This document shows, one piece after another, positions 8,443-57,074 of a stretch of DNA of 64,000 bases. Below the pieces are notes generated by a model. It was not told where the DNA came from. It saw only the letters and a list, made by a program, of their open reading frames with translations, and ran no database searches. The position numbers were made by a program, and so were the translations under genes. Position 1 is the first letter of the stretch, and every line of letters begins with the position of its first letter. This DNA is from Eublepharis macularius (lineage: Eukaryota; Chordata; Lepidosauria; Squamata; Eublepharidae), in contig NC_072800.1 in the NCBI RefSeq assembly GCF_028583425.1, forward strand, positions 90,720,501 to 90,784,500. Reading direction: 5' to 3'.

Positions 8443-8668
8443 ACATGCCCTGACCTGGATAGCCCAGGTGAGCCTGATCTTGTCAGATCTCAGAAGCTAA
8501 ACAGGGTTGGCCTTGGTTAGTAATTGGATGGGAGACCTCCAATAAGGACCAAGGTTGCAGAGGCAGACAATGACAAACCTCCTCTGTTCATTTCTTGTCA
8601 TGAAAACCCCACCAGGGGTCGCCAAAAGTCAGCTAAGACGTGAAGGCACTCTCTGCCACCAACTCTTC
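8443..8668 (+). mobile_element. 5S rRNA-derived SINE
   Basis: The words GCCTGATCTTGTCAGATCTC, AGAAGCTAAACAGGGTTGG, GGTTAGTAATTGGATGGGAG and ACC follow the order of vertebrate 5S rRNA including its internal promoter region. The non-rRNA body (GCAGAGGCAGACAATGACAA, AAAGTCAGCTAAGACGTGAA) shows that it is a SINE and not a 5S gene. A second copy is inverted at 22.6 kb. Confidence 0.8.
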
Positions 8669-13490: not shown

Positions 13491-13522
13491 ATTATTATAA
13501 TAGTTCAACTACAGCTACCCAC

Positions 13523-27334: not shown

Positions 27335-27463
27335 TCAATGTATCTCCTCTTCCAAGGCAGTACTATTGGCATGTCCCTTCTCTGGAGGATTCTTTTGGAT
27401 TGCCCTCTCAGAAATGACCAAGTCACCAGCTCAGAGCAACTTTTAAAAAATCAAGATACTTGT

Positions 27464-28841
27464 TGTTACCAGAACTGCTCTTTATTGTAATGGGGAATTA
27501 GCTGTAGCAGTCTGTAACTATTAATATTTAAGCGAGGATCATAACCTATGTATACGGAGGTCCTGATCCCAGACACTCTAGTGAAAAAGAGGCAGACAAG
27601 GAGTAAGGTCCAAACACGTGTATTGAGTGTAGCGTAAGCCTAGCTTGCACAATCATACAAGGAACACACAAGGTCTAAGAAATACAGAGTAGGAAATACA
27701 GAGACGTTCGCATTAGCTGGTTCCCAACGATGATAAGGGAAATACTCACAATCCTGGAGCGAAGCAGAGACACGGCAGCGAGGGTGGCCCAATGCCAGCA
27801 CTGGGACCACAGACGGACAGCAAGGAGGTCTGGATAGGGAATGGCCGAGGCACCGAGTGGTCTGAGAGACCAGCTTAAATACCCCAAAACGTACCCTGGG
27901 GCTGGTGCTGTACTTGGTGGTTCTCACAGATTAAAACAAAGGGTCTAATGGGCTACTGAATGGCTTGGATGGGCCACTTTGGTAATCAGATTGTGATAAG
28001 TGACACCTCAGGAAGAGGGGACAAAAGAGGGAGGGGGAAATCCAAGTGGGCTGAAAGGATGTTCCAGCGGACAGGGCTTGTCCTGATGTCATCAGCTTTG
28101 GAATGCGGAGGTTTCTTTGAGATGCATTCTCTAAGTGCTTGGGATGGTCGGCACTTAGTTCTTCTCCGGGGCGGCTCCTAAGATATGCAGAGCGGGGCGA
28201 GGGGCTCTCGCTGCGGACGTGGTGTGCCCGCTTCGCTGAAATGGCTTCTCAAAGCAGTCCTCTTCCCCAGGGTCTTCTGGCTGCCTGAGAACATGGATGC
28301 CGGCTGGGCATAGCTGGGGCTGGATAGCAGGCTGCCCGGTAGCGAGGGCAAGCTCGGTGACCGGCCCGCGGGAGGCTCCAGGCGGGAACTGACCAGGGAG
28401 CGCCTAGCCAGGCTCGCTGGAGGTTTCCCCGGCAGGCGCCCGGCTGCTAGCAGCGGCTTGGGCCCATATGAGGCAGGCTTCCATGGAGGCAGCGGGAACA
28501 ACACTTTAAAACACAGTTCAAAGCAGGGAACAGGCACGGTCCGTGGCAGATGGCAAAGCAGGCACGGGGAACACAGTCCAAACGCACACTGGGAAGTCCA
28601 GACACAGATCAGGGCAGGGCTGCCCAGAAAAGAGGGTCCTTGGTGCAGTTAACCAAACATGGAGTCAGTAAACTACACAGTCTATGGCAGAAGCAAGGTA
28701 ATTGACACGCAGGTAGGAAACTGACACGTGTGCCAGAACACACACGTGCAAAGCAGTCTTTGGTGTAAAACAGCAACGCAGGAAACTTTAGCACAGTTCA
28801 TAGCAGGCTTCAAAGCAGGGGAGGGGGCCTACTTGGCAACA
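27464..28841 (-). repeat. 3' LTR of the provirus
   Basis: 1,378 bp, bounded on the plus strand by TGTTACCAG and TTGGCAACA, so both ends carry TG...CA with a short imperfect inverted repeat (TGTTACC/GGCAACA). Every block compared matches the 5' LTR at an offset of 14,111 bp. Candidate signals on the minus strand are a TATA-like TATTTAAG near 27,881-27,874 and AATAAA at 27,486-27,481. That AATAAA lies only 17 bp from the LTR end, implying a very short U5 or an end-placed poly(A) site. Short open frames here are duplicated merely because the LTRs are. Confidence 0.95.
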
Positions 28842-28853
28842 ATTCCCCCCCTC
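28842..28853 (-). other. Polypurine tract
   Basis: On the minus strand GAGGGGGGGAAT directly abuts the first TG of the 3' LTR, the position and composition expected for the plus-strand DNA primer of reverse transcription. Confidence 0.85.
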
Positions 28854-29099
28854 GGAGACCCCGGGACGTCAGGCGCGCGGGTCTCCGAACTTGACTTTAA
28901 AGGCGAGGTGGTCGGCAATGTCCGGTGGTCGAGCTTCGAGCGAAGAAGGAGTGGGAAGGGAAGGAGGGGGAGGCGTCACTCAAAAATTTAGTTTGGAGAA
29001 CCACCTAATCCGAATAAGTGCAATTTAGATCAGCCAATGGGCTGCAGGTCTCTGGGTTCACACCAGGGGGTGTGCTAAGTGCAACCGTCAGAATAAATA

Positions 29100-29900
29100 G
29101 CAATAATTCATAGCAATAGTAATTCATAGTAATAGGCAGCAATGATCAATTCATGCATATAAACAACAATAATTCATGTTTGGGTACATTGATCAATTCA
29201 TGGCGTGAGGTAATTCATATGGAATTCATGGCGGGTTAAAAGCATTAAAAACCAGGGGCAATTCATATACATGGATTAATTCATAAGCATAAGATTTAAA
29301 AGCAAAGACAATTCATGGTTCAATTCATGAATGTAGGATTAAAAGCAATTCATACAAGGTAAAGTGAAATGTGCAAGCAAGGCATAATTCATTGAGGGTA
29401 GGCTAATTCATAAATGGGTAAAATCATAAATACATAGATACATAGGGTTTAAAATGATAATTCAGGAAGTTAAAACTGATTTCATAGAGGATAGCAGCAA
29501 TAGTAAAAGCAAGTGCGGAGAAATAATTCATGGGGGGGTAAGCGGCGGAAGGGTTCATGGGGGCCAGAAAAATACACTCTGCAATTAAAAGACCAACTCA
29601 TATAGTCAGATTAAAACCAAATTCATCGAGCTTAAAATCAGAAATAAAATAACCTTTAAAAGAGACCGTTCAGGAGGGGTCCCGGTTAAAACCAAATTCA
29701 TAAAATAATAGATATGCTAGAATTACCTCGGCGGAGGGAGTCGGGTTAAAAAGGCAATTCCTGAGGTTAAAATCAAATTCATAGGGATAAAGTTCATGGG
29801 CGCACTTGCAATAGATAGAGAGAGGGACTAGTTCGGGGCTAAATTCATGGGAGTTAAAATTCATAAAAGCAGTGGAGGGAAATTCATAAAACCATAGAGT
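29100..29900. repeat. ATTCAT-rich irregular array inside the provirus
   Basis: About 800 bp between env and the polypurine tract contain at least 20 exact ATTCAT words (ATGAAT on the viral strand). They are unevenly spaced and mixed with TTAAAA words. No fixed period is visible, so it is not a simple microsatellite. A minus-strand frame over its right part (to 29,670) reads as repetitive EF/YEF peptides and is probably a by-product. Function is unknown. Confidence 0.75.
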
Positions 29901-30306
29901 AACAAAGATCACAGGCGGCTCAGTCCGCAGTACAGCTGCTGGACTGGGTTGCATATTTACAAGAACAAGCAAGCTTAGTCTATGTGTCCCAAAACACACT
30001 TCCACCCCCCCTTGCTGTCTGCGTCAATCCGCAGAGCAGGGTCGGTGAGCGGCGAGAAGGGCTTCAGGCACACAGTTCTAGTCCTCATGGAGGTGGCGCT
30101 GCTGGCGGTTGTTTGGAGACGGGCCGTGGGCTGGGAGGCAGAGAAACATGTCCCCCCCTAGTCCACAAGAGGGCCTCGGAGCGGTGTCCGGCAGCAAAGC
30201 GTCCATGGGGCCGGTGCAGGATCCGTACACATGATAAAACATAATCACAGTTCATAACAACGTAAGCAAATAAACAAGGGTTAAAGGAGGGCGCCAAGAA
30301 TCACCA
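29901..30306 (-). other. Untranslated stretch downstream of env
   Basis: No recognisable coding sequence. A minus-strand frame reaching 30,005 has its first ATG only at 29,954 and no recognisable domain. The stretch is moderately GC-rich compared with the adjacent ATTCAT array. Confidence 0.4.
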
Positions 30307-32694
30307 TTAGGGCAAGAGTAGGTCTGGATTGTAATGGTCCAGACGGTGGGATAGTTGGAGTTGCTGGAGCTGTCGGCGGCTCCAACAGCCCAAATAAAGT
30401 AATGAGGCACACAACAAAACTTGGAAGGCCAAAATAACAATGATCGGGTGCAAAGCCAAATTGTAAATTCCAGTGGCAGTGGGGCTCCAGCCAAAGAGGG
30501 TTTCCCACCACGAATGCTCGCCGGTGGTCTTAATCCGCTGGACAAGATCCAAAATCTCCTTTCCGTTGTGGGACACAACCAGAGCAGTGGTGTCCCCGTC
30601 CCTCTGGATGCTCTGGAGGGTGCGGTGAAGCTGCGGGTGGGTCAGGAGCTCGTGGATTAATTCCAGACCGATGCCAAGGGCGACAGGCTTCACATAACGA
30701 TAGATGGAGGGTGCCACCAGGATCTCTTCTTGGGTCCAGACCGGTACCGTGTAGGTGAAGTCGCAGGCTGCCACCGAAGACAGGTTGCAAAAGCAGCGAT
30801 TGACTCCCGGGATCACGGGCTTGAGCTGGAACGAGTTCAGGATCACAAAGTCGCAGGCCGTTCGCACGCAGGCACATCCTTTCCCAATGTAGACCACAGC
30901 AGAGCTGTTCTCCCGGACGACCTCGAAAGAGCACTCGTTGAGGGCGTCGACTTGCGGGGCTACACAGGGGTGATGCGGTGCAAAGGCTTGGTCTTGGCAA
31001 ATGAAGCCGGTCTGGTCTCGATGCTGGCACCCTTGGAGGCTGACGAGCTGCCATCCGGTCGGGGTGAAGCGGGCCCAATGGTCGGGGTGTCGGGCGTAGA
31101 GGACTTCGGTGTCGCTGACTTGGAGTCCCAGAGGCACGACTGGATACACATGGAATGACTCGTGCGCACTGGCCGTTAATAAAAATAATTTAAGCTCCTG
31201 GGTGGTCGGTGAGAATGAGGAATTTACGAGAGACCACCAGGATTCAAGCTCCAGTTCTATGGGTGACAATTTGGGCATAATCAATCTTTTGATCTCCAGG
31301 GGCAAGTGCCCATCCATGGCTTGCCGAATTAGCCCCATGGCCACAGCCTGATTTAATTGTTGGGCTTGCATACATGCCATAGCTATTGACACGTTGCGTT
31401 CAAAAGACTGTGTCCCTTTGAGCAGCAGAGAAAAATCTCTTTCAATTTGACTCTCCCAGTTAACTAAAATGGAGCTGATCTCGTGTTGCCCATTTGAAAT
31501 GGAATTTAGGGACTGCACCACCGGTTTACCTAAGTCGGAGATGCTAGTCGTGACATGGGCAAACTTATTAGCGAGAGTCTCAATGTTGACCGAATCCATG
31601 ATTGCTAAGCCTCCGGCTGCAGGAGCAGTCCAGTCGGCAATGCTTCGTCTGGCACGCGAGAGAGAGGGGGAGGGATCGATCCACAGTTGCAGCCATGCAT
31701 TCCAACCCTTGCTACCGGCCTCCAGATAGGGAGCGCACTGCGGCAGCCTCTGGGTTACATTTAGCTCAGCTAAGTCTATGCGGATCTCTTTTAAAGACAT
31801 TTGCGGGCGGACTAGAACTCTCTCTCGAATGTCAGTTTTCAAAACATGGGAGCCCACTATATGCGTGCCGCCTTGGCTTAATTGCTCATTGCTAGCAATC
31901 AAAGGGTCAATTTGGATGGTGTGGGTCTCCTGGGTCCGGATCAGCAGGGAATAATTGCCTGGTTCGTGAGTCAAATTTACAAAGAGCAGCCCAAGCCGGT
32001 GAAATTTCTCTACTAGGGGCTTGGTTTGGCATTCGGGCGTCTGTTGAACCAGTATCCAATCGGGTGGGCCGTGTTTGGCTAGGTCTTCCTCCTTTACAAT
32101 CCAGGTCAGGTTCTCCCAGCGCTCTATAGCAAAGGAGAGAACTGCGCCTGAAGGGGGCGTGATAGTGACCGATGCAGATTCAGTGGTAGTGGTGCCTAGT
32201 AGGATGGTCATTCTAAAGGGGTCTCCTGCCTTCCATACTGCGGCCGACACTAGAATTACTTCACAGTATGGTCCGAAAACCTCAGTGACAAATGGCGAGG
32301 TTTCGAAGTTGGCAGGGGTGGTATTTTTGTCTACCACCGGGACTGCGGTGGGGGCTGGCCTGATGCGGGGAAGAAACATACAAGGAATCGGAGCAAGTGG
32401 TGAAACAGTATCCGTAGGCGAGTAACACACTAGCTCTTGAGACAGAGTTTTTACTCCCACACATAAAATAACAAGCTCTGGGGGTCGGATCCACTGCTCT
32501 TCGCAACTGCGGAAGTTAGTGCGATCCGTGGGGGTGGTCATATTGCTCTGCTGCACAACTTTGCAGACCATCATTTCATTTCCTGCCAGGGTATTTATAC
32601 ATCTCCAGTGGGGGTAGGGCATTAATTTGGACGGACGTCCCTCTATTAGGGTGCCTGCCAGCACGAGCAAACACAGGGTAGCCAGGTGCCTCAT
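30307..32694 (-). CDS. env: Retroviral envelope glycoprotein (Env)
   Basis: This is the membrane glycoprotein for receptor binding and fusion, 795 residues from the ATG at 32,694. The open frame extends further upstream but only with non-ATG codons. An acceptor-like CCGCAG before 32,742 would put this ATG first in a spliced env message. A signal peptide opens the protein (MRHLATLCLLVLAG). A furin-type SRARR site at about 346-350 divides a 350-residue SU from a 445-residue TM. A hydrophobic anchor lies at about 744-770 with a 25-residue tail. Potential N-glycosylation sites are frequent in SU. TM is cysteine-rich between about 555 and 645 but has no CX6CC, and SU has no CXXC isomerase motif. 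So it is unlike gammaretroviral Env. The frame is intact, with no internal stop. Its family assignment is open. Confidence 0.88.
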   Translation of the reverse strand: MRHLATLCLLVLAGTLIEGRPSKLMPYPHWRCINTLAGNEMMVCKVVQQSNMTTPTDRTNFRSCEEQWIRPPELVILCVGVKTLSQELVCYSPTDTVSPLAPIPCMFLPRIRPAPTAVPVVDKNTTPANFETSPFVTEVFGPYCEVILVSAAVWKAGDPFRMTILLGTTTTESASVTITPPSGAVLSFAIERWENLTWIVKEEDLAKHGPPDWILVQQTPECQTKPLVEKFHRLGLLFVNLTHEPGNYSLLIRTQETHTIQIDPLIASNEQLSQGGTHIVGSHVLKTDIRERVLVRPQMSLKEIRIDLAELNVTQRLPQCAPYLEAGSKGWNAWLQLWIDPSPSLSRARRSIADWTAPAAGGLAIMDSVNIETLANKFAHVTTSISDLGKPVVQSLNSISNGQHEISSILVNWESQIERDFSLLLKGTQSFERNVSIAMACMQAQQLNQAVAMGLIRQAMDGHLPLEIKRLIMPKLSPIELELESWWSLVNSSFSPTTQELKLFLLTASAHESFHVYPVVPLGLQVSDTEVLYARHPDHWARFTPTGWQLVSLQGCQHRDQTGFICQDQAFAPHHPCVAPQVDALNECSFEVVRENSSAVVYIGKGCACVRTACDFVILNSFQLKPVIPGVNRCFCNLSSVAACDFTYTVPVWTQEEILVAPSIYRYVKPVALGIGLELIHELLTHPQLHRTLQSIQRDGDTTALVVSHNGKEILDLVQRIKTTGEHSWWETLFGWSPTATGIYNLALHPIIVILAFQVLLCASLLYLGCWSRRQLQQLQLSHRLDHYNPDLLLP

Positions 32695-34275
32695 CTCCTG
32701 GCCTTCCTTTTCCTTTTTGTGCCGAAAATATCCTGGGGAGACCTGCGGATATAAGTACAGGTTCCCTGAGTTTATTGCAGCAAAAATAAATGAAGTGAAG
32801 TGGGGAAAAGGAGGGCGTATTTCTGCCAGCACTGTCTATTAGGTGGGGCTCGAACGAGAAGTCCCAGAGCACTAAGCGAGCCTTCCAGCTTGTTGCTCTG
32901 GGGAACTCCTGTGCGAAGGTTTCTTTCTCAAGCGTGTATATTTCAGGGGGGACGTCTTTGCGTCGGGCGAGGGTCGGCTGAACGTTAGGCGGGATTATGC
33001 AAACTCGCCCCAGGGGTCCCTGGGTGCCTAGGCTATGTGGCCTTCAGGTGCCCCTTGCTCGGTGGCGGGCTACTTTTATTTTGCGGGCTGAGAGCTATCT
33101 GTCCGGCTCGGCCTGGCCTTGCCGTTTAAAAAAGAAAAGAAAACTAAAGAGCGGCTTACATTGACTATAAGGGTTGCTGCAGACGGGGGCCCTCGCTTTA
33201 ATTTTTCAAAAATAGGCCTTCGTCATATGTTTGCAGGACTAGCAATTTTTGGAGGGACTCCCTCGGGAGGCCCCATTTTCTGGTTTTTTAAAAAAAAAGG
33301 TTGCACCGGGCAAAAAGAAAAATATACTGAGCAAACGCAAAATGCACTGAGCAAAAAAGAAAAACACATGGAGCAAGAGGCATACGGGTGTGGGGTACTT
33401 TTAGGTTGCCCTCACTTGGAAGGCCTGGCAGGGCTTCATTATAACTTCAATATGTCTCCCCCCCTTCTTTTCCCTTATACGGTACGGGCAAGGGAAAAGA
33501 TTACGTGGGGCAGGCGGCTGCTGGCGGAAAGGGCCGAAATGGAGCCGAAGGCGCTCGGCGGCGTTTATCGAAAAGCGGCGGAGGCGGCCGAGATCTGTCG
33601 GCGCCACTGGGTCTGGGTTATTTGGGGGTCATCTTGGCGCAGGGGATCCTGGCTATGTAAATGAGGTACGCTGCCCCTTGTGCGTGGCGAACGCACCTCA
33701 ATAACACATTCCGGAGGGCACATATTTACAAAATACTGGCGGGTCTTTTACCTTTGCACTAAAGCGTACTGGCTGGTGGCGCCGTATAGCAACTCACCAT
33801 GACGAATATGAACATTAGTAAAAGAGGGATGTTGGGCTATCTGGGGATCCTTTTCCAGGGGAGGCACGGCCCTCAAAGCCAAAGCCGACCATCATGCGAA
33901 AGCGTGGGTCTGGCAGGTGAGACCCCGAATCTACGTAGATGCGGGATCTTCACCAGCACGGCGGGTGAAATGTTTTCAAACAAAGAAATCACCTTATTTG
34001 GTGGTTTCAACGTTGGAAGACTGCATTCACTTCTGGGCCAAAGCCTCTCCAATCACCTCCACACACAGCAAATCTCTTTTGCCTGTGCAATTTTTTTCCG
34101 AACATGCGGCTTATAATCCAATTGAGAATCACTTTCGGTGGTGGTCCTATTTGGCTTTGATTGCCGTGTCTTCTCTTAAGGGTCCCAACTGTGGGGCCCG
34201 CCTAATGAGGTCAAAGAATAGAACTGGAAAAACTTTTACCATTTACACCGATATCTACATATTCTATTGTTTCTT
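32695..34275 (-). other. 1.6-kb gap between pol and env
   Basis: In most retroviruses env overlaps or closely follows pol. Here 1,581 bp intervene with no convincing coding frame on the viral strand. The last 48 bp contain the putative env splice acceptor. On the opposite strand an open frame spans 33,119-33,664, but its first ATG is at 33,227 and the product is basic and unrecognised. I see no host exon captured here. Confidence 0.5.
32742..32760 (-). other. Candidate env splice acceptor
   Basis: Minus-strand GTACTTATATCCGCAG|GTCTCC lies 48 bp before the env ATG. The pyrimidine tract is weak. It would make the signal-peptide Met the first start codon of a subgenomic env RNA. Confidence 0.4.
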
Positions 34276-37200
34276 TTATTCTAAAGCTACAAAAGTCTGA
34301 TCTAAGGGGACACACGGTATCTCTGGCCCAGGGTGGAGTGATATCTGGCGAATCACTGGGCAGAGGGGGGCTGGGCTGGTGGTGGTTCCCCCAGGATCAT
34401 ACACAGGGGGGGCGGTTTGCAGCGGCTTCCCTTTCCATTCTTTTAATTGAGAGGCATGAAAGTATTTTAGCCACGTTCCTCCTGTCTTTCTTTGGATGGC
34501 TACCTGATAGACAGCTGGGGAGACTCTTTTTGTGATAGAGACTGGGCCTTGCCATTTGGCTGCTAGTGAATGCGCCTTTTGCAAAAACTTCCTGTACAGA
34601 ACGAGCTGTCCTTCTTCCCACTGCCTGGGGTTCCTGACCCATCCTAGTTTGCGGTCCATATCTTTCTGAGCTGTGCCCAACCTCTGGGCCACTTGCATGT
34701 GGACGGCGTGTATGGATGAGAGCAGATCCTGGACCCAAGCATCATTAATCACTACGGGCTGCATATCGGAAGGGAGCTGCGTATCTAGCCAGAAGGCTTC
34801 CGGGAGCTGCATTCTTCGCCCTGTCATTACCATATGGGGTGTGAGCCCGTGAACTGCGGTAGTGCCTCTAATGGCCATTAGGATTATGGGGAGTTTTTCA
34901 TCCCAGTCTCTCCCGGAGGAGCGAACCATCTTGCGGAGAGCCTCCTTGAGGGTCCGGTTGGTTCTTTCTATGGCGCCTGAAGCTTGGGGGTGGCCGGCTA
35001 TGTGGAAACGTTGCTGGATGCCCAGTGCTTTACAAAGCTCCTGTGTTACTTCTCCGATGAAGTGTGAGCCTAAATCAGAGTCCATGACTCTCACGATGCC
35101 CCATCGCGAGAAAACATTATTAAACAGTAATTTGGCTGTGGTGGCTGCATTGTTGCGCTTGCACGGAAACGCTTCGACCCATTTGCTGAAGGGGTCTATG
35201 ACGGTGAGGCAGTAGCGATTGCCGCGAGCAGTGGGGGGAAGAGGGCCGATAAAGTCAATCTGTATGCGCGCCCAGGGTCCATCAATTCTCTGATGCTGGA
35301 GGGGAGCTCTAGGTCCGGTGGGGTCTGCATTGACCATAGCGCAGGACAGACAGTTGTCCACCCATTGCGCTACTTCGGTGCGCATGCCAGGCCACCAACC
35401 AACCTCTTTTACCCTTTCCAGAGTCAGATCCTTGCCTCGGTGTCCCTGTTCGTGGACAAACTGAATTAAGTCAGCCCTAACTTCCAATGGCACTATCCAA
35501 TGGCGTTCGCCGGCTGCATCTACTGCCCAAACTATGCCTTCCTCTTCTCTGATCATGAGTCTCCCTGTCTGATCCCTTCCTGCGGCTAGGAGGTTGGTTA
35601 TTTCTGGGTCAGATAGTTGCAGTTGTGCTAGGTCTAGTGTTCCTGCGGTTCCCTGAGCTTGGCTGCGGGCTTGTGCCCGAGTGGTGACAGGGCGGAGGGG
35701 ACAGTCGGTGGCTGATTCCGGTAGGGGAGCATTTTCAGTGGCGGCTGCCTTGGCTGCAAGGTCTGCCTGGTCGTTCCAATAAGCGGTCTCTGAATTTGTC
35801 TTCTGGTGTCCCTTGACATGGGCCACCTGTGTTGGGCCTGAGCGGGACTGGAGGAGTGCTGCTACTTGCTGCCATAGCTGTAGGTGGGCTACGGGTTTCC
35901 CATCGCTAGCTCTCCACCCCTGATTCTGCCATACCGGGAGCCAGACCGTGGCGGCTTTGGCCGTCCAATCCGAGTCTGTGTAAATGGCAAGTGGGCTTTC
36001 TGGGGGCTCAAACTCAAGCACTGCCAGAAGCGCTTGCACCTCAGCCGCTTGGCTGGAATGGGGGCGGGCTGGACCTTTGAGGGTATGGGCGTCGCTCACT
36101 CGCACGGCGCCATAGCCTGTCCGAGGGGAGCCTCCAACGTGAAAGGAGGAGCCGTCACAGAACCAGCATGTGAAGCCGTTCTGTCGGGCTTCCTCTAGCG
36201 GGACTCCCCAAGTAACTGGCCAGACAACCTGTGGTGGCGGGTCCAGGGGGCACTCGTGCTCGGTCCCGGTTACCAATAGGCCATAGGGGGCTGGTGGCTC
36301 AGTGGTTTCCTTTTTGAATTCTACTCCGCGGTTGACTAGGGCCAGGGTCCACTGCGCTATGCGGGCGTTTGAGACTTGTCCGTCTTGTATTTTTCCCGAC
36401 AGGATATATTTGAGAGGCGTGTGGGTAGTTTGAACTATTGTGCGGGAGCCTCCTATGATAAATTCCCAATGGGTCAGACTCCAAACTAGAGCAAGGCATG
36501 TCTTCTCGCATGGGCTAAACTTAGTCTCTACTGCGGTTAGGTTGCGAGAGGCATAGGCTACTACTCTAGCGGTTCCCGCTTGCTGCTGGGTGAGCGTGGC
36601 TCCTATGCTCTTGTCTGATACTGCTAACTGGATAAAGAATGGCTGAGTTACATCTGGATGGGCTAGGGCCGGGGCCGCGGCCAGACTGCGCTTTAGCTCG
36701 GCTAAGGCTGTCTGTTGCTCCGGTCCCCACTCCCAGGGAGTGTTCTTCTTGAGGAGGGCATAAAGGGGGCGAGCTTTGTCTGCAAAGGACTCGATGAAGT
36801 CTCGGGAAAAGTTGAAAGTCCCTAGAAGGGCTCTGAGGGAGGGGACATCGGTGGGTGCAGGCAGCTTGGAAATGACCTCCATTCGCTGGGCGTCCGGGGT
36901 ACGACCCTCGGGTCCCAGGGTCAGACCCAGGTACTTGACGCTGGTCTGAACCAATTGGGCCTTTTCCCTGCTTGCCTTGAACCCAGTCTCGCGGAGGAGT
37001 TCCAGGACTTCCCTGGTGATTTGGCGGGCTAATTCTTCCGTGGGGGCGTGGACTAAAATGTCATCCACGTAGCTCAGTACGTGGGGCCTCGAGGAGGGTT
37101 GGAGGCGTTCCCACATTTGAACTACATGGGCATGACAAATGCTGGGGCTGGAGTGGAATCCCTGGGGTGTCCGCTTGAATGCGTATTGCTGGCCACGGAA

Positions 37201-38115
37201 AGTGAACGCGAACTTGTACCAGCAAGACTCATGCAACCGGATGGAGTGGAAGGCATTGGCCAGGTCTATGACCGAGTAGAACCGGGACCCAGCGGCAATG
37301 GCCGTTAGGATCTCATTATACTTGGCCACAACCGGGGCAACTGGAGGGGTGGTGGCATTCAGGGCACGGAAGTCGACCGTCATTCTCCAGGTCACTCCAT
37401 CTGCTTTCAGAACTGGCCACAATGGGGCGTTGCAGATGGACTGCATTGGGAGTATGACGTCCCACTCAAGGAGTCCTTCTATAGTCTTGGCTATCCCTGC
37501 CTCAGCTTCTGCTGGGTACTTGTACTGTCTTTGGGGAGGGGGGTCCTTTCCTTCAATCAGGACGCAGGCGCCCTTCACTATCCCACACTCGGCTTTATCT
37601 GTCACCCACACTTCGGGAAAGTCCTGAACCCAGGGGTCTCCTGTGATGGGGGCGAGAGGAAGGGGGGCCTTGAGGGCTGCACATCGATGGACTGCATTAA
37701 CAAAGTCTGGGCCTCCCGGGATGCGCCACAGGAGCCCGTTCGCTAGGTCAATGGTCAGTCCCTCGGCACGGAAAAATGGCATGCCCAAAAGTCCATCGTC
37801 TTCTCCCCGGTTTGCGCACGCTGAAATCCGGGTGGCCAGGTTCCCAACGGAGAGGGGGATATCCTGCCAGACCGGGGATTCCTGCGTGCCGCCTCCAAAA
37901 CCGGCGAGCTGCATGGTTGTGGGGGTCTGGGTGCCCTTTGTAACTAAGGTGGGCCGGAGTATATTAAGAGAAGCTCCGGTGTCTATAAGGAGAGTGGCAG
38001 GCTTCTTCTTTTCCCCGGGAGTCCCGATCCCTGCCTTTACTGTCGGTCTCCCCCATGTGTCCGGCTTTAGTTTGGCAACTATGCCCACGGAGGGAGACTG
38101 GGACTCGGGGCAACC
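34276..38115 (-). CDS. pol: Pol polyprotein (protease, RT, RNase H, integrase)
   Basis: The frame starts directly after the gag UAG and in the same frame, with no ATG, so it is made as Gag-Pol by stop-codon readthrough. Positions counted from the GTG valine at 38,088: protease with the LLIDTGAS active site (D36); reverse transcriptase with YVDD at 340-343; RNase H with D645, E683, D705 and D776. Integrase has an H879/H883/C913/C916 zinc finger and a D945-D1005-E1041 triad with the canonical D,D(35)E spacing, then a C-terminal domain. All catalytic residues are present and there is no stop or frameshift over 1,279 codons. No dUTPase domain was seen. The sequence style is closer to gamma/epsilon/foamy than to lenti- or betaretroviruses. 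Confidence 0.95.
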   Translation of the reverse strand, partial: GCPESQSPSVGIVAKLKPDTWGRPTVKAGIGTPGEKKKPATLLIDTGASLNILRPTLVTKGTQTPTTMQLAGFGGGTQESPVWQDIPLSVGNLATRISACANRGEDDGLLGMPFFRAEGLTIDLANGLLWRIPGGPDFVNAVHRCAALKAPLPLAPITGDPWVQDFPEVWVTDKAECGIVKGACVLIEGKDPPPQRQYKYPAEAEAGIAKTIEGLLEWDVILPMQSICNAPLWPVLKADGVTWRMTVDFRALNATTPPVAPVVAKYNEILTAIAAGSRFYSVIDLANAFHSIRLHESCWYKFAFTFRGQQYAFKRTPQGFHSSPSICHAHVVQMWERLQPSSRPHVLSYVDDILVHAPTEELARQITREVLELLRETGFKASREKAQLVQTSVKYLGLTLGPEGRTPDAQRMEVISKLPAPTDVPSLRALLGTFNFSRDFIESFADKARPLYALLKKNTPWEWGPEQQTALAELKRSLAAAPALAHPDVTQPFFIQLAVSDKSIGATLTQQQAGTARVVAYASRNLTAVETKFSPCEKTCLALVWSLTHWEFIIGGSRTIVQTTHTPLKYILSGKIQDGQVSNARIAQWTLALVNRGVEFKKETTEPPAPYGLLVTGTEHECPLDPPPQVVWPVTWGVPLEEARQNGFTCWFCDGSSFHVGGSPRTGYGAVRVSDAHTLKGPARPHSSQAAEVQALLAVLEFEPPESPLAIYTDSDWTAKAATVWLPVWQNQGWRASDGKPVAHLQLWQQVAALLQSRSGPTQVAHVKGHQKTNSETAYWNDQADLAAKAAATENAPLPESATDCPLRPVTTRAQARSQAQGTAGTLDLAQLQLSDPEITNLLAAGRDQTGRLMIREEEGIVWAVDAAGERHWIVPLEVRADLIQFVHEQGHRGKDLTLERVKEVGWWPGMRTEVAQWVDNCLSCAMVNADPTGPRAPLQHQRIDGPWARIQIDFIGPLPPTARGNRYCLTVIDPFSKWVEAFPCKRNNAATTAKLLFNNVFSRWGIVRVMDSDLGSHFIGEVTQELCKALGIQQRFHIAGHPQASGAIERTNRTLKEALRKMVRSSGRDWDEKLPIILMAIRGTTAVHGLTPHMVMTGRRMQLPEAFWLDTQLPSDMQPVVINDAWVQDLLSSIHAVHMQVAQRLGTAQKDMDRKLGWVRNPRQWEEGQLVLYRKFLQKAHSLAAKWQGPVSITKRVSPAVYQVAIQRKTGGTWLKYFHASQLKEWKGKPLQTAPPVYDPGGTTTSPAPLCPVIRQISLHPGPEIPCVPLDQTFVALE

Positions 38116-38118
38116 CTA
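38116..38118 (-). promoter_or_regulatory. In-frame UAG readthrough site between gag and pol
   Basis: The stop reads GAA TAG GGT TGC CCC; the downstream frame stays open through pol with no shift. Leaky UAG followed by G is the arrangement used by murine leukaemia-type viruses, where a downstream pseudoknot stimulates suppression. GC-rich blocks that could pair follow within 40 nt, but I have not folded them. Confidence 0.75.
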
Positions 38119-40146
38119 TTCTGATCCTGCACTCTGGTCGGTGGAAGCGGCGCTTCTTCTAAAGGGGTTGTTGGGGCTCGGGTGCTCTCGAACCGCAGCT
38201 ATCGGGGGACTCGAGAAGGGAGGGTCTGGCGGCAAAGGAGGCGCCGACGGAGGTACTGGGGGCTGCTGCTGGTCTTCCCACTCCATGATCGCCTTCATTA
38301 GAACGGACGTGGGCTTTCCGTCGAAGAGCTCCATGTTCGCTCCAATGTTTTTGAGGCGCATCCAAAGTTCCCAACGGAGGGAGTCCCTGGACTGGGGCGT
38401 GCTGCCGCGGTCCCGGTAACCCTCGTGGTCGCCCTGCGATGCTCCCCAAGCATTGGACTGATCTGGAGGCGGGTAGACCTGATGGTGGTACGGGTGCGAT
38501 GCTCGCGAGTGAGAAGGGGCTATGGGTGCATCCTGCAGTCGGGGCTCGTGGGGTCCTTGCTGGGAGGAGGAACTGTAACTCGGGGCGGGCGCAAAGGAGA
38601 CTCCCGGGCGGTAGTCCCTTGGTCCTCTTCCCCGGTTAAAGCTGCCGCTCCTTCCCCTCAGGATTCCTCCCCTTGCCTCCGGATACGGGCTGCGTCCCTG
38701 TGGTCGGTATTGAGAGTGGGGGCCATGATTGGCATAGGTGACTGCACTTATCGGCTCGCTCTCCTTCCTACGAGAGGCCGGGGGCTTCACATGGCGGATG
38801 GCGCCGGTTTCTCGCAACAGGCCAGCAATGCTTCTGATGCGAGCTTCCAGGTCTCCCCATGAGATGCTCCCGGGCTCCACTCCTGCCAGTGCTAGGCGGG
38901 TGGTACTATTGAGTCCATCTAAGACTGCTCTCCTGAATTCTAATTCGTCAAAGTCGGGTACATCGCTGGCATCCAAATCTACTTCATCTGCTAGCTCAGC
39001 AAGAAGCTGCTTTCTGGCTAAATATGCCTCTGGGTCCTCTCCGGGTTTTTGAGACTCTGCGATGTACAGGGCTTTCAAACTTTTGGTGGGCCACAGGAAT
39101 GCACAGATCTCCTTAATTGCTCCATACTGGCTGCGTGTGGCTAGCCTTCGGTTAGAGATATAGGCATTCAGGGCCGAGACTATTTCAGGGGCAGCGCATT
39201 GGCGGGCCAGCTGGGCCACATCGGAACCACTAGCGGAGGGCTGGGAGGTGGTCACATGGGTGAACCACTGGATGGCCGTGTCTCGGTTTAGGGGTCCCAT
39301 ACGGTCTGCTATGGCTTGGAGCTCATCGGGCCTCCAATTGCGGGTTTCCTTAACGACCCGGTCTGTTTTCCTGCCATCCTCGTCCATGGATACTATTTCC
39401 TTGGTAGATATGGGATGGAGGGGCTGTGGGGCTTCCTCGGGCTGGGGCGACTGAGATGCCCAGCTATCCTTACTATCTTCTGGGAGGGCCAAGAGGGCTG
39501 AGGGGTGCACGGCGGAAATTACGGCCTGTTGCATCCCCAAGTGTCGCTTTAGGGCCTCTAGCTCCCTCTTACAAGCTGAATGGTCCGCGGCTGCGGTTTT
39601 AGACTGGTTGTGGTCCGCCATGAACCGGGCGGCATGGGTGAGCTTAGTAATCTCTTCTTGTCCCTCCGTTAATGCGTGCTCAGCCATATCGGCACGAGCG
39701 GTGGCCGCTTCAGCCTTGTGCTGAGCGTCCTGGAGGGCGGTAGTTAGTCCTTGCTTCTCTAGTATGAAATTGACGCGTTCAGCGCGCCACTCAACTGCCT
39801 TTTCCTCATGTTCTCTCTCCTGGTCGGTTAGCTTGGTCCTGAGAGTCTGGATTTCTAGGCGCAAGGCGTCCTGCTCTCGTTTTGACCTCTCCTCTAACTC
39901 CTCCTGTGCTGTTTGCAACTTGCTAATTAGGGACACACTGTCCTGCAGGGCGGTGAAAAGTGCCCAGGCTCCATATCTGTCCTTCTTACTTGACCTAGGT
40001 TTCTCCTTTTCGCAAAAATCCTGGAAGGCGCTTCTGACTATCTGGAGCGGGTCGGGTCCCTTGAAGGAACCTGCTTCCCAAGGGCAATCTCCCTTCTTAA
40101 CTAGCCACTTCTCCAGGCGGGGCACGGCGGGGTTTGCCCGGTACAT
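38116..40146 (-). CDS. gag: Gag structural polyprotein
   Basis: Gag, 676 residues from the first ATG at 40,146; the frame is open upstream to at least 40,203 without an ATG. Its neighbour in the same frame is pol after one UAG (38,118-38,116). The N-terminus lacks Gly2, so ordinary myristoylation is not expected. A Glu/Arg/Lys/Ala-rich coiled coil spans about 71-200. The capsid part (about 255-445) has a major-homology-like stretch around 366-379 (QKPGEDPEAYLARK). The C-terminal part has an Arg-Gly-rich segment at about 494-513 in place of a CCHC knuckle, none of which is present. A PSAP late-budding motif lies near residue 634. Coiled coil plus RG-rich nucleic-acid binding recalls foamy virus Gag, but the readthrough layout does not. 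Confidence 0.9.
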   Translation of the reverse strand: MYRANPAVPRLEKWLVKKGDCPWEAGSFKGPDPLQIVRSAFQDFCEKEKPRSSKKDRYGAWALFTALQDSVSLISKLQTAQEELEERSKREQDALRLEIQTLRTKLTDQEREHEEKAVEWRAERVNFILEKQGLTTALQDAQHKAEAATARADMAEHALTEGQEEITKLTHAARFMADHNQSKTAAADHSACKRELEALKRHLGMQQAVISAVHPSALLALPEDSKDSWASQSPQPEEAPQPLHPISTKEIVSMDEDGRKTDRVVKETRNWRPDELQAIADRMGPLNRDTAIQWFTHVTTSQPSASGSDVAQLARQCAAPEIVSALNAYISNRRLATRSQYGAIKEICAFLWPTKSLKALYIAESQKPGEDPEAYLARKQLLAELADEVDLDASDVPDFDELEFRRAVLDGLNSTTRLALAGVEPGSISWGDLEARIRSIAGLLRETGAIRHVKPPASRRKESEPISAVTYANHGPHSQYRPQGRSPYPEARGGILRGRSGSFNRGRGPRDYRPGVSFAPAPSYSSSSQQGPHEPRLQDAPIAPSHSRASHPYHHQVYPPPDQSNAWGASQGDHEGYRDRGSTPQSRDSLRWELWMRLKNIGANMELFDGKPTSVLMKAIMEWEDQQQPPVPPSAPPLPPDPPFSSPPIAAVREHPSPNNPFRRSAASTDQSAGSE

Positions 40147-40439
40147 TTTTCTTTTTAGTTTAAGGCTGATCTCGGGGGAGGTTAAAGAGTAGATCAGCGA
40201 CACCAGGGGTGGGGCGATTAAAGCTGCTCAAGGGTTTTAACAACTTCTTCCTCTCTATGTCCCTTTTGGGAGGTTTATCCTTCCCTCAGGTCCTCAAGGG
40301 TTTTTACCAGGGGGTTTTAAGGTTCTACCTTTAGGTTCACAAGGGGATTTTTAAGGGTTCTACACTCGGCTCTTCTCCACCGGGGGAGAAGGGAAAATTC
40401 CTATTCCCGTTTCAAGCTTGCCTACAAGCCACGGGACCA

Positions 40440-40990
40440 GGAAAAGTTTACTGGCTCAGAGGGTGCTCTCAAGCTCTCTAAGCCCAAGAACAAAAACGCT
40501 CAGTGCTTCCAAGCCTCTGCTTAGAAGCTAAAGCTCAGGGGTCTCCCAAGCCTCTGCGCTCAGAAAACCAGAAAGTGTTCCCAAGCCTCTGCTCGGAAAC
40601 TGAAGTGCTCCCAAGCCTCTGCTCAGAAGCCGCAATTAAGGGGTCTCCCAAGCCTCTGCTCAGAAGCCAAAATGCTCTCAAGCTCTCTAAGCCCAAGAAC
40701 TAAACTCAAAGTGTCCCCAGGCCTCGTGCTCAGAGACAAACGGTTAAACTGTCTCCAAGCCTCGACCAAAAGACCAAAAGCGCTCAAGGACTGCCTCTGC
40801 ACGTCCCCAAGCAAAATTGCTCAGGAGTAAAGCTTACTGTACTCCCAAGCGAGGTGCGTTCAAGAGTTCTAACAACTCCCAAGCAAAAGTGTGCCCAAGA
40901 GTCCCACTGACTCCCAAGCAAGGTGCACCCACGAGTCTGACGTAAAACTCGCAAGCGGAAAGGCGCCCAAGAGTCTACCTTAAAACTCTT
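40440..40990 (-). repeat. Degenerate tandem repeats in the proviral leader
   Basis: The plus strand repeats TCCCAAGCCTCTGCTCAGAA-like units at least six times (40,500-40,660). CCCAAGCxxxxTGC units with GCACCTTGCTTGGGAGT-type inverses follow to 40,990. Unit length drifts around 35-50 bp. It sits in the untranslated leader between the primer-binding site and gag, where packaging or IRES elements would normally lie. Confidence 0.7.
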
Positions 40991-41521
40991 AAGCACGGTG
41001 CGGCCGGCTGCCGCGGGGCTTCAGGAACCTGGCTTTAGATTCCCAAAGCTAACTAACCAAACGGACTATCGATCCCTTCACGTTTCCTCCGGAGCGGGGA
41101 TTGAAGCCTAAGTGCTGGCAGGAACGGGGTTTGGACGGACTTAGGAGAGACGGGGGCGGGCGGAAGAGAATTTTATATGTGCTGCTTCAGGATATATATA
41201 TCTATAGAGCCTACTTCTGGGATCCCACCCACATAGACGCGTTTAGGCGGCCCGGAAGGTGGCCAGGAACTTTACCAGTTCAGAGGTCCTCACCCACAGT
41301 ACACCGGTTATAACGGCTGGAGGGCCTCGCGGTGCACCACAAAAGGCAAGTAGTCCAAAGCTGGCTGAAGGAGGAAATGGGGAAAAGCCAACCCACAAGA
41401 TAGAAATGCTCGCTAGAGCCACACACACTCACACTTTTAATTCCCTGAGCTAAATTGCGCTCTTTACACTGAGGTCTGGAAAATTTTCCTCTAAGTCAGT
41501 TCGCTGGAGACACGCGTGTCG

Positions 41522-41528
41522 ACTCACG
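41522..41528 (-). other. Candidate major splice donor
   Basis: Minus-strand ACAC|GTGAGT lies 23 nt downstream of the primer-binding site, the usual place for the retroviral major donor that would join to the env acceptor at 32,742. Confidence 0.35.
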
Positions 41529-41550
41529 TGTATTCACACGAACTGGGTTA

Positions 41551-41568
41551 TGCCCGCATTCTCCACCA
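41551..41568 (-). other. Primer-binding site, tRNA-Ala type
   Basis: The viral strand reads TGGTGGAGAATGCGGGCA, six bases after the 5' LTR. Its complement, TGCCCGCATTCTCCACCA, equals the 3' end of a vertebrate tRNA-Ala (AGC-type) plus CCA as I recall it, 18 of 18. The match is from memory and not from an alignment. It also fixes the LTR boundary and viral orientation. Confidence 0.75.
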
Positions 41569-41574
41569 GTAAAC

Positions 41575-42952
41575 TGTTACCAGAACTGCTCTTTATTGTA
41601 ATGGGGAATTAGCTGTAGCAGTCTGTAACTATTAATATTTAAGCGAGGATCATAACCTATGTATACGGAGGTCCTGATCCCAGACACTCTAGTGAAAAAG
41701 AGGCAGACAAGGAGTAAGGTCCAAACACGTGTATTGAGTGTAGCGTAAGCCTAGCTTGCACAATCATACAAGGAACACACAAGGTCTAAGAAATACAGAG
41801 TAGGAAATACAGAGACGTTCGCATTAGCTGGTTCCCAACGATGATAAGGGAAATACTCACAATCCTGGAGCGAAGCAGAGACACGGCAGCGAGGGTGGCC
41901 CAATGCCAGCACTGGGACCACAGACGGACAGCAAGGAGGTCTGGATAGGGAATGGCCGAGGCACCGAGTGGTCTGAGAGACCAGCTTAAATACCCCAAAA
42001 CGTACCCTGGGGCTGGTGCTGTACTTGGTGGTTCTCACAGATTAAAACAAAGGGTCTAATGGGCTACTGAATGGCTTGGATGGGCCACTTTGGTAATCAG
42101 ATTGTGATAAGTGACACCTCAGGAAGAGGGGACAAAAGAGGGAGGGGGAAATCCAAGTGGGCTGAAAGGATGTTCCAGCGGACAGGGCTTGTCCTGATGT
42201 CATCAGCTTTGGAATGCGGAGGTTTCTTTGAGATGCATTCTCTAAGTGCTTGGGATGGTCGGCACTTAGTTCTTCTCCGGGGCGGCTCCTAAGATATGCA
42301 GAGCGGGGCGAGGGGCTCTCGCTGCGGACGTGGTGTGCCCGCTTCGCTGAAATGGCTTCTCAAAGCAGTCCTCTTCCCCAGGGTCTTCTGGCTGCCTGAG
42401 AACATGGATGCCGGCTGGGCATAGCTGGGGCTGGATAGCAGGCTGCCCGGTAGCGAGGGCAAGCTCGGTGACCGGCCCGCGGGAGGCTCCAGGCGGGAAC
42501 TGACCAGGGAGCGCCTAGCCAGGCTCGCTGGAGGTTTCCCCGGCAGGCGCCCGGCTGCTAGCAGCGGCTTGGGCCCATATGAGGCAGGCTTCCATGGAGG
42601 CAGCGGGAACAACACTTTAAAACACAGTTCAAAGCAGGGAACAGGCACGGTCCGTGGCAGATGGCAAAGCAGGCACGGGGAACACAGTCCAAACGCACAC
42701 TGGGAAGTCCAGACACAGATCAGGGCAGGGCTGCCCAGAAAAGAGGGTCCTTGGTGCAGTTAACCAAACATGGAGTCAGTAAACTACACAGTCTATGGCA
42801 GAAGCAAGGTAATTGACACGCAGGTAGGAAACTGACACGTGTGCCAGAACACACACGTGCAAAGCAGTCTTTGGTGTAAAACAGCAACGCAGGAAACTTT
42901 AGCACAGTTCATAGCAGGCTTCAAAGCAGGGGAGGGGGCCTACTTGGCAACA
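41575..42952 (-). repeat. 5' LTR of the provirus
   Basis: 1,378 bp, the direct repeat of 27,464-28,841. Candidate promoter: TATTTAAG on the minus strand at about 41,992-41,985, predicting transcription start near 41,960. AATAAA is at 41,597-41,592. U3 would be about 1 kb and R-U5 about 390 bp. These signal assignments are inferred from consensus and position. Confidence 0.93.
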
Positions 42953-43060
42953 TTGTACACAGCTAGGTTAAACTGACTAAATGACCTCTTCCCACTTTGT
43001 CTGACTTCAAGAAAGGAAGGATCAGGAGTTCCCAACCAGAGTTGTTTAAATAGTAAATAT

Positions 43061-54965: not shown

Positions 54966-55311
54966 CCTCACTAACTCTTATTGGCCCTTCGGTTTATATG
55001 TTTTAAATAATACACACACTGACATATTTTAAATGCTGGTTTTAACGTTCCACGCATTTGAATGTTCTACGCTTGCGTAAGAGCTATTTGCAAGAGACCC
55101 TAGGTTGAAACCTGCCGATCTGTTCCCCCCAGTGGTAATGCTTTCATTGGGCACAAGAGCCTCTTGAGACAAAGAAAGACTCTTTGCACCAGAAGAAAGC
55201 CCAGTGGAACAGATTCACAAAATCTAAACCCTGCGTATACATCAAACGTCTAAACTAATTTTACCGCTACCTCCTTTTAGGTTTAAACTTGCCATGGATT
55301 ACATTACTGAC

Positions 55312-57037
55312 CTTTTTCCGTTCCCTCTCTAGCGCCCTCCACTGATCGTAACATTCTTCTAGATGAATATGGAGCTCGTTTGCAGGACCACTACGATTCT
55401 TTGGAGGCCTGTAGTTGTTAAAAGGCGGTGGAAAGGCAAAGCACGGTGCAGCTACATCTCCGCAGAAGAGGTCGGTAATTAAGGGACTCAAGTGGTGAAA
55501 ATCATCGTAGTGAAAGAGGTCAACCAGTTCAGAAAATGGGAAGGGCAACGGGGAAAAGGCAACATTTACTGGCGACGGGAAAGGATGAGAATTAAATGGA
55601 GGAAAGTTCGGTGCGTGGGTATAGCCAGACACTAACGGGAAAAGAGGAAGGAAAGAAGGATTGATGAAGTCTGCCAAGCTACCGTTCTGATCTTGTTTTC
55701 TTCTCAAGGCATCAAACTGAGCTTGATTTAGGCCTGCATAGCCTGGGTGCAGAATCCGGTTATTTTTACCTCTTCTGTCGTTCTGCACCGTTCTTTCATT
55801 AGTACTGTATTGGCTTTGTTTGTTATGAAATCTATGATATTTTGCAGACTCGTTTGAAGAACACTGCTGTGATAGCCAGCTGGGGGAGGCATTAACAGGT
55901 ATTTTACCACAGAGTCCTTCTGAAGTCACTGATGAAGCATTCTGGGAGCATCTCATAGGGCTCTGTTTCTTATGCTTTTCGGAGGTGGAAAGCCCTGAGC
56001 TACTGGGAATGTTGTTGGGCATCTGCAATTTCCCATTTTTTCTTGAAGACGACACAGGTGACATCTGTGGACAGGAAGGCTGGGCGACAGAATGATCAAC
56101 GGAAGAGTGAACTGAAGACAGCTGAGAATTCATTTGCTTCCCGTAAGTGACACATGATGCTGTCGCTGTATTTAGTATTTTGGTATCCAACCAGGTGTAT
56201 CCATTGTAAGATGAATTTGCATTCTGTTCAATCGGTTTTAGAGGCAAGGAATTACAGGATTCCTTTGAAGGATGTTCAGGGATTTTACATTCAGGATTAC
56301 AAAAGGTTATTTCTGTATTAATACTATGATGTGCGTTTTGTGGGTAGGTTTCCTGCCATTTTGAATTCATTCCATCGGGAAAACTATTTTCCTTATTGGA
56401 TGTTGTTGCACAAATGTAAAAGGATGGAAAACTAAACTGCTGTGATTCATTAACAGTGGTAAAATCTGTGTATCTTTCAGGGGACAAGTTGTTTTCTTCG
56501 GTCACTAGGTCCCAAATGCCATCGGAATTATTACACAGTTGGCTGAAGTACTGGCTTGGTCCTTCTGGATCATTTCCCCCAAGCATTCCTCTTGCTTTAT
56601 CCATTTTTGGATATTCTTTATTAGTACTACCCTTTATTCTAGCTTGAGATGAAAAAGTGTGAAAATCTGTACGGCTCTTTCCACTGCCGTTATTTAATTG
56701 CTTCTTATCGTAACTGTGTATGTTCTGATATTCTAGACTGTCTTGATGATTGATTCCATTCCTTTTAAAAGCCTTGTTTGTGGGAACAGCATCCCTGAAA
56801 ACCTTTTCAGGAGACTGAGTGCAAGCATCAGAAAGCGCATGCCAAGTTCCTGTAAGGCGGAAATCGTCAAGGTCTTTCTTTAATGACTCTGTGGAGTCTC
56901 TCGTGTTTTCTTCGTAAGGGTTCAGCGTACTGACTAGGTTAGTCAAATCTTTATTTTCCAAAATACTTTTAGGAAAAAGTCCTGAGAAACTGTTTTCTGA
57001 TGACCACATGGGTGGAAACAATCTTGAAAGAGCATTC
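55312..57037 (-). CDS. MEIOC: MEIOC large central exon (575 codons)
   Basis: MEIOC is a germ-cell cytoplasmic RNA regulator that, with YTHDC2 and RBM46, lowers mitotic transcripts and lets germ cells complete meiotic prophase. This 1,726-bp exon, typical of the gene, opens with NALSRLFPPMWSSENSFSGL and contains a long Ser/Asn-rich, probably disordered region. It closes with the conserved LHIHLEECYDQWRALERERK, the start of the coiled-coil domain. The acceptor is TTTATCTATTACAG before 57,037. The donor AAAAAG|GTCAGT follows 55,312; reading on through it gives only a short spurious tail. The frame is fully open. The first base completes a Trp codon begun in the exon at 59,687. Confidence 0.93.
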
Positions 57038-57074
57038 CTGTAATAGATAAATATTTTAATGCTAAACATTTTGT

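What the first reader, a model, noticed from the sequence alone, without database searches (positions are those of the whole stretch)
27464..42952. Intact 15.5-kb endogenous retrovirus with apparently identical LTRs
All landmarks are present (TG...CA LTRs, TTGT duplication, PBS, PPT, open gag, pol, env) and no difference was seen between the 1,378-bp LTRs in the blocks compared. Since the two LTRs are identical at integration, this implies a very recent insertion, possibly polymorphic or still active. Its length is unusual for a provirus.
Basis: partly seen in the sequence, partly recalled or inferred. Interest (0 to 1): 0.9.

Follow-up and report, generated by a model that had tools for sequence, protein, structure and literature searches.

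The report
Young intact provirus, old reptile lineage
A reptile-like genome carries a complete, apparently undamaged copy of an unusual retrovirus that inserted very recently; its nearest described relatives seem to be old virus relics in birds and reptiles, so it could help show whether that virus lineage is still alive.

Summary
A 15,489-bp provirus lies on the minus strand (27464-42952), with LTRs identical at 1378 of 1378 positions, a 4-bp TTGT duplication, primer-binding site, polypurine tract and uninterrupted gag (676 aa), pol (1279 aa, same frame after a TAG) and env (795 aa); the checked PR, RT, RNase H and IN motifs are in place. Zero differences bound LTR divergence below 0.22% (95%), about 0.2-1.4 Myr at recalled rates. 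Its length comes from long LTRs plus three stretches of 1.4-1.6 kb without a recognised gene. Pol falls in the retroviral clade but with neither the gamma-type nor the dUTPase-bearing rows; three close relatives were found, one named (Pelodiscus). Printed features of chicken OVEX1, a relative of tuatara SpeV, recur here: in-frame amber, zinc-finger-free Gag, protease without GRD, H3H29C2C plus 59/35 integrase spacing, GPV. I read it as a young, ORF-intact member of an OVEX1/SpeV-like sauropsid radiation, a label resting on motifs, not on a tree with those viruses; ERV4 or lokiretrovirus membership is not excluded. Activity, polymorphism, copy number and host species are untested.

The parts
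41575..42952 (-). 5' LTR, 1378 bp, TG...CA
   Evidence: identical to the other LTR at 1378/1378
27464..28841 (-). 3' LTR, 1378 bp
42953..42956 (.). target-site duplication TTGT, provirus 5' side
   Evidence: sequence
27460..27463 (.). target-site duplication TTGT, provirus 3' side
   Evidence: sequence
41550..41568 (-). primer-binding site; I recall it as the complement of a tRNA-Ala 3' end (no call)
   Evidence: position and single occurrence
40147..41574 (-). leader of 1428 bp with two imperfect tandem arrays (40841-41001, 40543-40688)
38116..40146 (-). gag, 676 aa from the first ATG of the frame, then TAG; no CCHC zinc finger, some RG pairs, MHR-like QKPGEDPEAYLAR, one PSAP motif
   Evidence: 0 Pfam families
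38116..38118 (-). amber stop TAG followed by G; pol continues in the same frame (readthrough inferred)
   Evidence: RNA fold from the stop z -1.70, 13 of 200 shuffles at least as good
34276..38115 (-). pro-pol, 1279 aa: protease, RT (YVDD), degenerate first RNase H (tether), RNase H, integrase (H3H29C2C, D59D35E), WQGPV
   Evidence: Pfam RVT_1, RT_RNaseH_2, RT_RNaseH, RNase_H, Integrase_H2C2, rve above cut-off, protease models at 21.8-21.9 bits, below cut-off; motifs
32695..34275 (-). 1581-bp stretch between pol and env without a recognised gene
30307..32694 (-). env, 795 aa: hydrophobic N-terminus, one RARR site at 347, membrane anchor starting near 743-754, 10 sequons, no CX6CC
   Evidence: relative P0048 at 55-56%
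28842..30306 (-). 1465-bp stretch between env and the 3' LTR without a recognised gene
28842..28853 (-). polypurine tract GAGGGGGGGAAT next to the 3' LTR
   Evidence: sequence

Best explanation
This is a recently integrated, ORF-intact provirus of a simple-plan retrovirus (gag-TAG-pol, env) that belongs to a deep branch of sauropsid retroviruses, closest in printed features to OVEX1 of birds and SpeV of tuatara. Shown: structure, LTR identity, open frames, catalytic motifs, the retroviral pair of RNase H domains. Inferred: transcription from the LTR (TATTTAA at LTR position 961), priming by tRNA-Ala, Pol made by amber readthrough, Env from a spliced RNA and cleaved at RARR, integrase making the 4-bp duplication, and entry into the germ line within about the last million years by infection or by re-integration of a sister copy. 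The lineage label is the least certain step.
For: LTRs 1378/1378; open genes and motifs. Pol relatives: P0005 79%, P0006 71%, P0007 (Pelodiscus sinensis) 64%, among 43 hits in the 7999 candidates scored. RT+tether tree of 26 of the 44 rows: 18 retrovirus-type rows form one clade against 8 rows without a second RNase H (100/99); the window clade of 4 lies apart from the gamma-type rows (3) and the dUTPase-bearing rows (3). OVEX1 features printed in PMC2717909 (section 8 part 1, sections 14 and 19) met here: amber between gag and pol in one frame; no zinc finger; MHR of the form PxAYxxRKxxL; LIDTGAS protease without GRD; tether then RNase H; integrase H3H29C2C with 59/35 spacing; GPV in place of GPY/F; a long Env without CX6CC. 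Among 22 rows compared, H3H29C2C together with D59D35E occurs in 2, the window and P0006; P0005 has 58/35 and P0007 is cut short; 2 of 3 gamma-type rows have 57/35 (the third unreadable), 3 of 3 dUTPase rows H4H28 with 57/35, P0008 (Xenopus) and P0009 H4H29 with 59/35.
Against: No OVEX1 or SpeV sequence was available, so kinship rests on motifs. Several are shared with others: amber readthrough and 4-bp duplication with gammaretroviruses, H3H29C2C with gamma rows, 59/35 with P0008, P0009 and 2 of 5 Ty3-type rows. OVEX1's authors think its ORF3 may come from another retrovirus, so Env likeness is weak. The deep branches are unresolved: four AU tests (gamma+dUTPase p 0.432, the same plus P0008/P0009 0.428, window+bird group+gamma 0.249, window+bird group+P0008/P0009 0.237) reject nothing. 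IN and RNase H trees do not place the window clade; in both its nearest rows by path outside the clade are P0008/P0009. Gag found no relative in the 8000 candidates scored. RT/RNase H scores highest with MLV-type structures (255 bits; Ty3 209, foamy 204), though a turtle gamma ERV scores 547. Coiled coil in Gag was not predicted by a program; only a 73-aa stretch without P or G was seen.
Confidence: 0.56

Rival explanations
1. It is a member of ERV4, the class described from crocodilians, Pelodiscus and painted turtle, with no characterised exogenous counterpart.
For: The relative P0007 is from Pelodiscus sinensis, a host of ERV4 (PMC4299795 section 8). No zinc finger, no dUTPase match, env kept.
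Against: ERV4 typically has a 5-bp duplication and no GPF/Y motif; here 4 bp and WQGPV. The authors note that duplication length varies within classes and rest the class on pol phylogeny.
Confidence: 0.2
2. It is a lokiretrovirus, the dual-RNase-H lineage of lampreys, fish, amphibians and reptiles whose Env resembles fusion proteins of Mononegavirales.
For: Dual RNase H and an env; reptile-type host; Env from the RARR site to the anchor is about 390 aa, long for a retroviral TM (recalled), with a cysteine-rich block. In the IN and RNase H trees the nearest rows outside the clade are P0008 (Xenopus) and P0009, whose own class is not known here. PMC9040795 parts 1-3 of 4 seen.
Against: No Pfam hit for the window Env and no PDB hit for the Env alignment at loose cut-offs (that Pfam holds fusion glycoprotein models is recalled, and HMMER's filters drop weak matches). 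The structure prediction failed (pLDDT 32). No loki reference sequence on hand.
Confidence: 0.15
3. It is a divergent gamma/epsilon-type (class I) retrovirus.
For: In-frame amber, 4-bp duplication; best solved-structure match is an MLV-type RT; the AU test does not reject window+bird group+gamma (p 0.249).
Against: No zinc finger, no CX6CC, no MLVIN_C match, integrase 59 not 57 spacing, apart from 3 gamma-type rows in the RT tree.
Confidence: 0.08
4. LTR identity is an assembly artefact and the provirus is older.
For: No reads were available.
Against: Open frames over 8.2 kb, catalytic motifs in place, and higher CpG than the flanks argue for youth on their own.
Confidence: 0.03

Closest known systems
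OVEX1 (chicken, zebra finch; PMC2717909)
   Same: gag-amber-pol in one frame, zinc-finger-free Gag with MHR, protease without GRD, integrase spacings, WxGPV, long Env without CX6CC
   Different: As printed, OVEX1 is over 100 Myr old, devoid of typical LTRs, and has lost two RT aspartates and the first integrase aspartate; its ORF3 seems to lack a signal peptide. Here both LTRs and the checked residues are present. No sequence comparison was possible.
SpeV of tuatara and CrocERV37-39
   Same: reported as relatives of OVEX1 in reptiles (PMC2717909 section 14; PMC4299795 passage)
   Different: sequences not held; not compared
ERV4 of crocodilians and turtles (PMC4299795)
   Same: no zinc finger, no dUTPase, env kept, reptile hosts
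   Different: typically 5-bp duplication and no GPF/Y; 4 bp and GPV here
P0005/P0048, P0006 and P0007 (Pelodiscus)
   Same: pol 79, 70-71 and 64-65% identical; env P0048 55-56%
   Different: P0005, P0006 and P0048 come from unnamed sources; their gag, LTRs and hosts were not seen

Membership tests
Retrovirus (dual RNase H, env, LTRs) | LTRs, PBS, PPT, gag-pol-env, tether plus RNase H | tested here: met
OVEX1/SpeV-like lineage | gag and pol in one frame split by an amber codon | tested here: met
   also true of gamma- and epsilonretroviruses
OVEX1/SpeV-like lineage | Gag without zinc finger, with MHR | tested here: met
OVEX1/SpeV-like lineage | coiled coil in N-terminal Gag | tested here: inconclusive
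   73-aa stretch 60-132 without P or G, no coil program
OVEX1/SpeV-like lineage | protease without GRD/N; integrase H3H29C2C and 59/35; GPV | tested here: met
OVEX1/SpeV-like lineage | RT groups with OVEX1 and SpeV | not testable with these tools
   neither was among the 43 hits as far as their names show
ERV4 | 5-bp target duplication | tested here: not met
   4 bp; said to vary within classes
ERV4 | no GPF/Y motif | tested here: inconclusive
   WQGPVSI at that place
ERV4 | no zinc finger, no dUTPase | tested here: met
ERV4 | pol phylogeny | not testable with these tools
   no ERV4 reference held
Lokiretrovirus | dual RNase H | tested here: met
Lokiretrovirus | Env similar to Mononegavirales fusion proteins | tested here: inconclusive
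   no Pfam/PDB match, fold failed
Lokiretrovirus | RT sister to canonical retroviruses | tested here: inconclusive
   backbone unresolved
Gammaretrovirus | Gag zinc finger; Env CX6CC | tested here: not met

The most novel reading that the evidence does not exclude
The OVEX1/SpeV-like retroviruses, known from old relics in what I read, are not extinct: this copy comes from a virus that circulated in reptiles within the last few hundred thousand years, with an Env family that the profile libraries searched do not recognise, and a group of gag-pol-like genes with dead enzymes, four of them from named birds, are domesticated descendants of the same branch.
Probability: 0.25. Interest if true: 0.8.

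Novelty: new member of a known kind. Interest (0 to 1): 0.55.

Why it matters
ERV4 is described as having no characterised exogenous counterpart, and OVEX1 as severely degenerated (abstracts of PMC4299795 and PMC2717909). An intact, very young provirus of such a branch would give the complete gene plan of a poorly known, deep part of the retrovirus tree, a reference for reading bird relics, and a way to ask whether the lineage still infects reptiles. It also supplies an Env whose only relative found was on one unnamed contig.

Tried and rejected
Env fold from a two-row alignment: mean pLDDT 32, so no fold search was run. Relatives in viral contigs: pol 0 pattern matches, env 112 pattern matches and 0 confirmed. 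Gag homologues: none at E 1e-3 among the 8000 candidates scored. The rows P0010-P0014, P0016 and P0017 (7 rows; P0011, P0013, P0016, P0017 from named birds, the other three unnamed) were first taken for OVEX1; rejected, because 4 of the 5 rows checked keep YVDD (P0013 has HIDD) and 5 of 5 have lost RNase H and integrase residues, nearly the opposite of what is printed for OVEX1 (P0016 and P0017 not checked for this). Gag kinship with the N-terminal parts of those proteins: BLASTP best E 0.34 and 0.84; phmmer best 4.5 bits, and a profile of four of them scored the real Gag below the best shuffles; two segments picked after seeing that alignment were reached by 32 of 2000 and 0 of 2000 shuffles: suggestive only. 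Host-gene capture between pol and env, known for CrocERV29: no Pfam match. Rfam in 27400-43000: none up to E 0.1. Tree rows: one search used 43 of 44 (P0026 too short there); one search used 26 of 44, picked by hand, leaving out long-branch, short and near-duplicate rows and further rows without a second RNase H; one search used 23 (IN) and 19 (RNase H) of those 26.
Full report
What is there. The window holds a provirus on the minus strand. Its LTRs (41575-42952 and 27464-28841) are identical at all 1378 positions. They begin TG and end CA and sit between two copies of TTGT, with different outer flanks. Six bases inside the 5' LTR is a 19-base primer-site sequence at 41550-41568, found once in the window; I recall it as the complement of a tRNA-Ala end. 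A purine run abuts the 3' LTR. Minus-strand open frames give gag (676 aa from the first ATG of its frame), pol (1279 aa) directly after a TAG in the same frame, and env (795 aa).

Condition. DTGAS, YVDD, the RNase H aspartate and glutamate motifs, the integrase zinc finger H3H29C2C and the triad D59D35E are in place. Pfam finds RT, two RNase H-type regions and integrase domains in pol, protease models below their cut-offs, and nothing in gag or env. CpG observed/expected is 0.61 in the provirus and 0.32 and 0.43 in the two flanks. With 0 of 1378 differences the 95% upper bound on LTR divergence is 0.22%, which is 0.2 to 1.4 Myr for rates of 5e-9 to 0.8e-9 per site per year (rates recalled).

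Length. The 15,489 bp are made of two 1378-bp LTRs, a 1428-bp leader with two imperfect tandem arrays, the three genes, and two stretches of 1581 and 1465 bp without recognised genes. The self-comparison shows no repeat shared between the interior and the flanks. The longest stop-free frame in the pol-env stretch, 190 aa and antisense, was matched by 3 of 300 base shuffles; in the leader and the env-LTR stretch the longest frames were matched by 170 and 81 of 300. The antisense frame has no Pfam match.

Host. LINE frames that I recognise from memory as CR1 (no Pfam match for the one scanned), an exon with three immunoglobulin domains of obscurin type and a MEIOC exon lie in the flanks. The nearest named relative of pol is from the softshell turtle Pelodiscus. 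I infer a sauropsid, probably a turtle; no call names the host.

Relatives and trees. Of 43 pol hits in the 7999 candidates scored, three are close: P0005 79%, P0006 71%, P0007 64%. Env has one relative among 7999, P0048, 55%, on a contig of the same length as P0005's. Gag has none among 8000. In the RT tree of 26 rows, 18 retrovirus-type rows are one clade (100/99) and the window clade joins six bird-group proteins (97/98), apart from gamma-type rows (P0015 and P0019 with MLVIN_C, P0027 without) and dUTPase-bearing rows; the first tree of 43 rows agrees on the pairing (99/97). The bird-group rows scanned show no Pfam match for the second RNase H (P0011, P0012, P0014). The order of the deep branches is open: four AU tests gave p 0.237 to 0.432. 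The IN and RNase H trees do not recover the window+bird pairing, and in both the rows nearest to the window clade by path are P0008 (Xenopus) and P0009. P0008 scores alike with Ty3, MLV-type and foamy structures (229, 228, 228 bits); the window's pol scores 255 with MLV-type, 209 with Ty3, 204 with foamy; a turtle gamma ERV 547 with MLV-type.

Lineage. I compared printed features. OVEX1 (PMC2717909: abstract, passages, section 8 part 1 of 2, sections 14 and 19) shares the amber junction, zinc-finger-free Gag with MHR, the protease without GRD, H3H29C2C with 59/35, WMGPV (WQGPV here) and a long Env without CX6CC. The single features are shared with other groups; it is the combination of the two integrase spacings that sets the window and P0006 apart from the other 20 rows. 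ERV4 (PMC4299795: abstract, sections 6, 8, 12 and passages) typically has a 5-bp duplication and no GPF/Y, unlike here, but its authors rest the class on phylogeny, which I could not test. Lokiretroviruses (PMC9040795, parts 1-3 of 4) have an Env like Mononegavirales fusion proteins; profile searches found no such match and the fold failed. A 2024 screen mentions an 'unusual ERV' in the pig-nosed turtle (PMC11089739, passages); I did not see its supplement, so whether it is kin is unknown. Of PMC12440569, PMC10996621, PMC10508981, PMC5753468, PMC8278194, PMC6001957 and PMC3230843 I saw passages only.

How it most likely works. LTR-driven RNA, tRNA-primed reverse transcription, Gag and a minor share of Gag-Pol by amber readthrough (the RNA fold from the stop is only mildly stable, z -1.70), a spliced env RNA, cleavage at RARR, a PSAP late motif for budding, and integration with a 4-bp duplication. 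All of these are inferred from anatomy; none was assayed.

Verdict. The added part is the placement: a young, ORF-intact member of an old sauropsid branch, most likely OVEX1/SpeV-like. The rows listed (capped lists, up to 1,380 papers behind one of them) showed no title describing this provirus; most subscription papers are not held.

Noticed in passing
proteins P0010-P0014, P0016, P0017: Proteins of up to 1292 aa, four of the seven from named birds (cormorant, swift parrot, Humboldt penguin, an Amazona parrot), keep an RT region but in 5 of 5 rows checked have lost RNase H and integrase residues; they group with the window RT and may be a domesticated gag-pol gene other than OVEX1.
   Followed up: partly
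window 13518-14666 (-): Three immunoglobulin I-set domains; top solved-structure match is titin over a longer stretch, and single-domain chains of obscurin match at E 4e-43 and 1e-42: probably an obscurin-family exon.
   Followed up: partly
window 55270-57075 (-): 602-aa open frame ending in the start of the MEIOC domain (profile positions 1-39); the provirus may lie in an intron of this gene or beside it.
   Followed up: partly
window 8455-8561 (+): 5S rRNA-like sequence just over the Rfam cut-off (38.8 against 38 bits): pseudogene or 5S-derived SINE.
   Followed up: no
window 33092-33664 (+): 190-aa antisense stop-free frame between pol and env, matched by 3 of 300 shuffles, no family match.
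   Followed up: partly
window 40543-41001 (-): Two imperfect tandem arrays (periods 30 and 38) in the provirus leader, purpose unknown.
   Followed up: no
LTR position 1356 of 1378: The only AATAAA in the LTR lies about 20 nt from its end, which would leave almost no U5 if it is the poly(A) signal.
   Followed up: no
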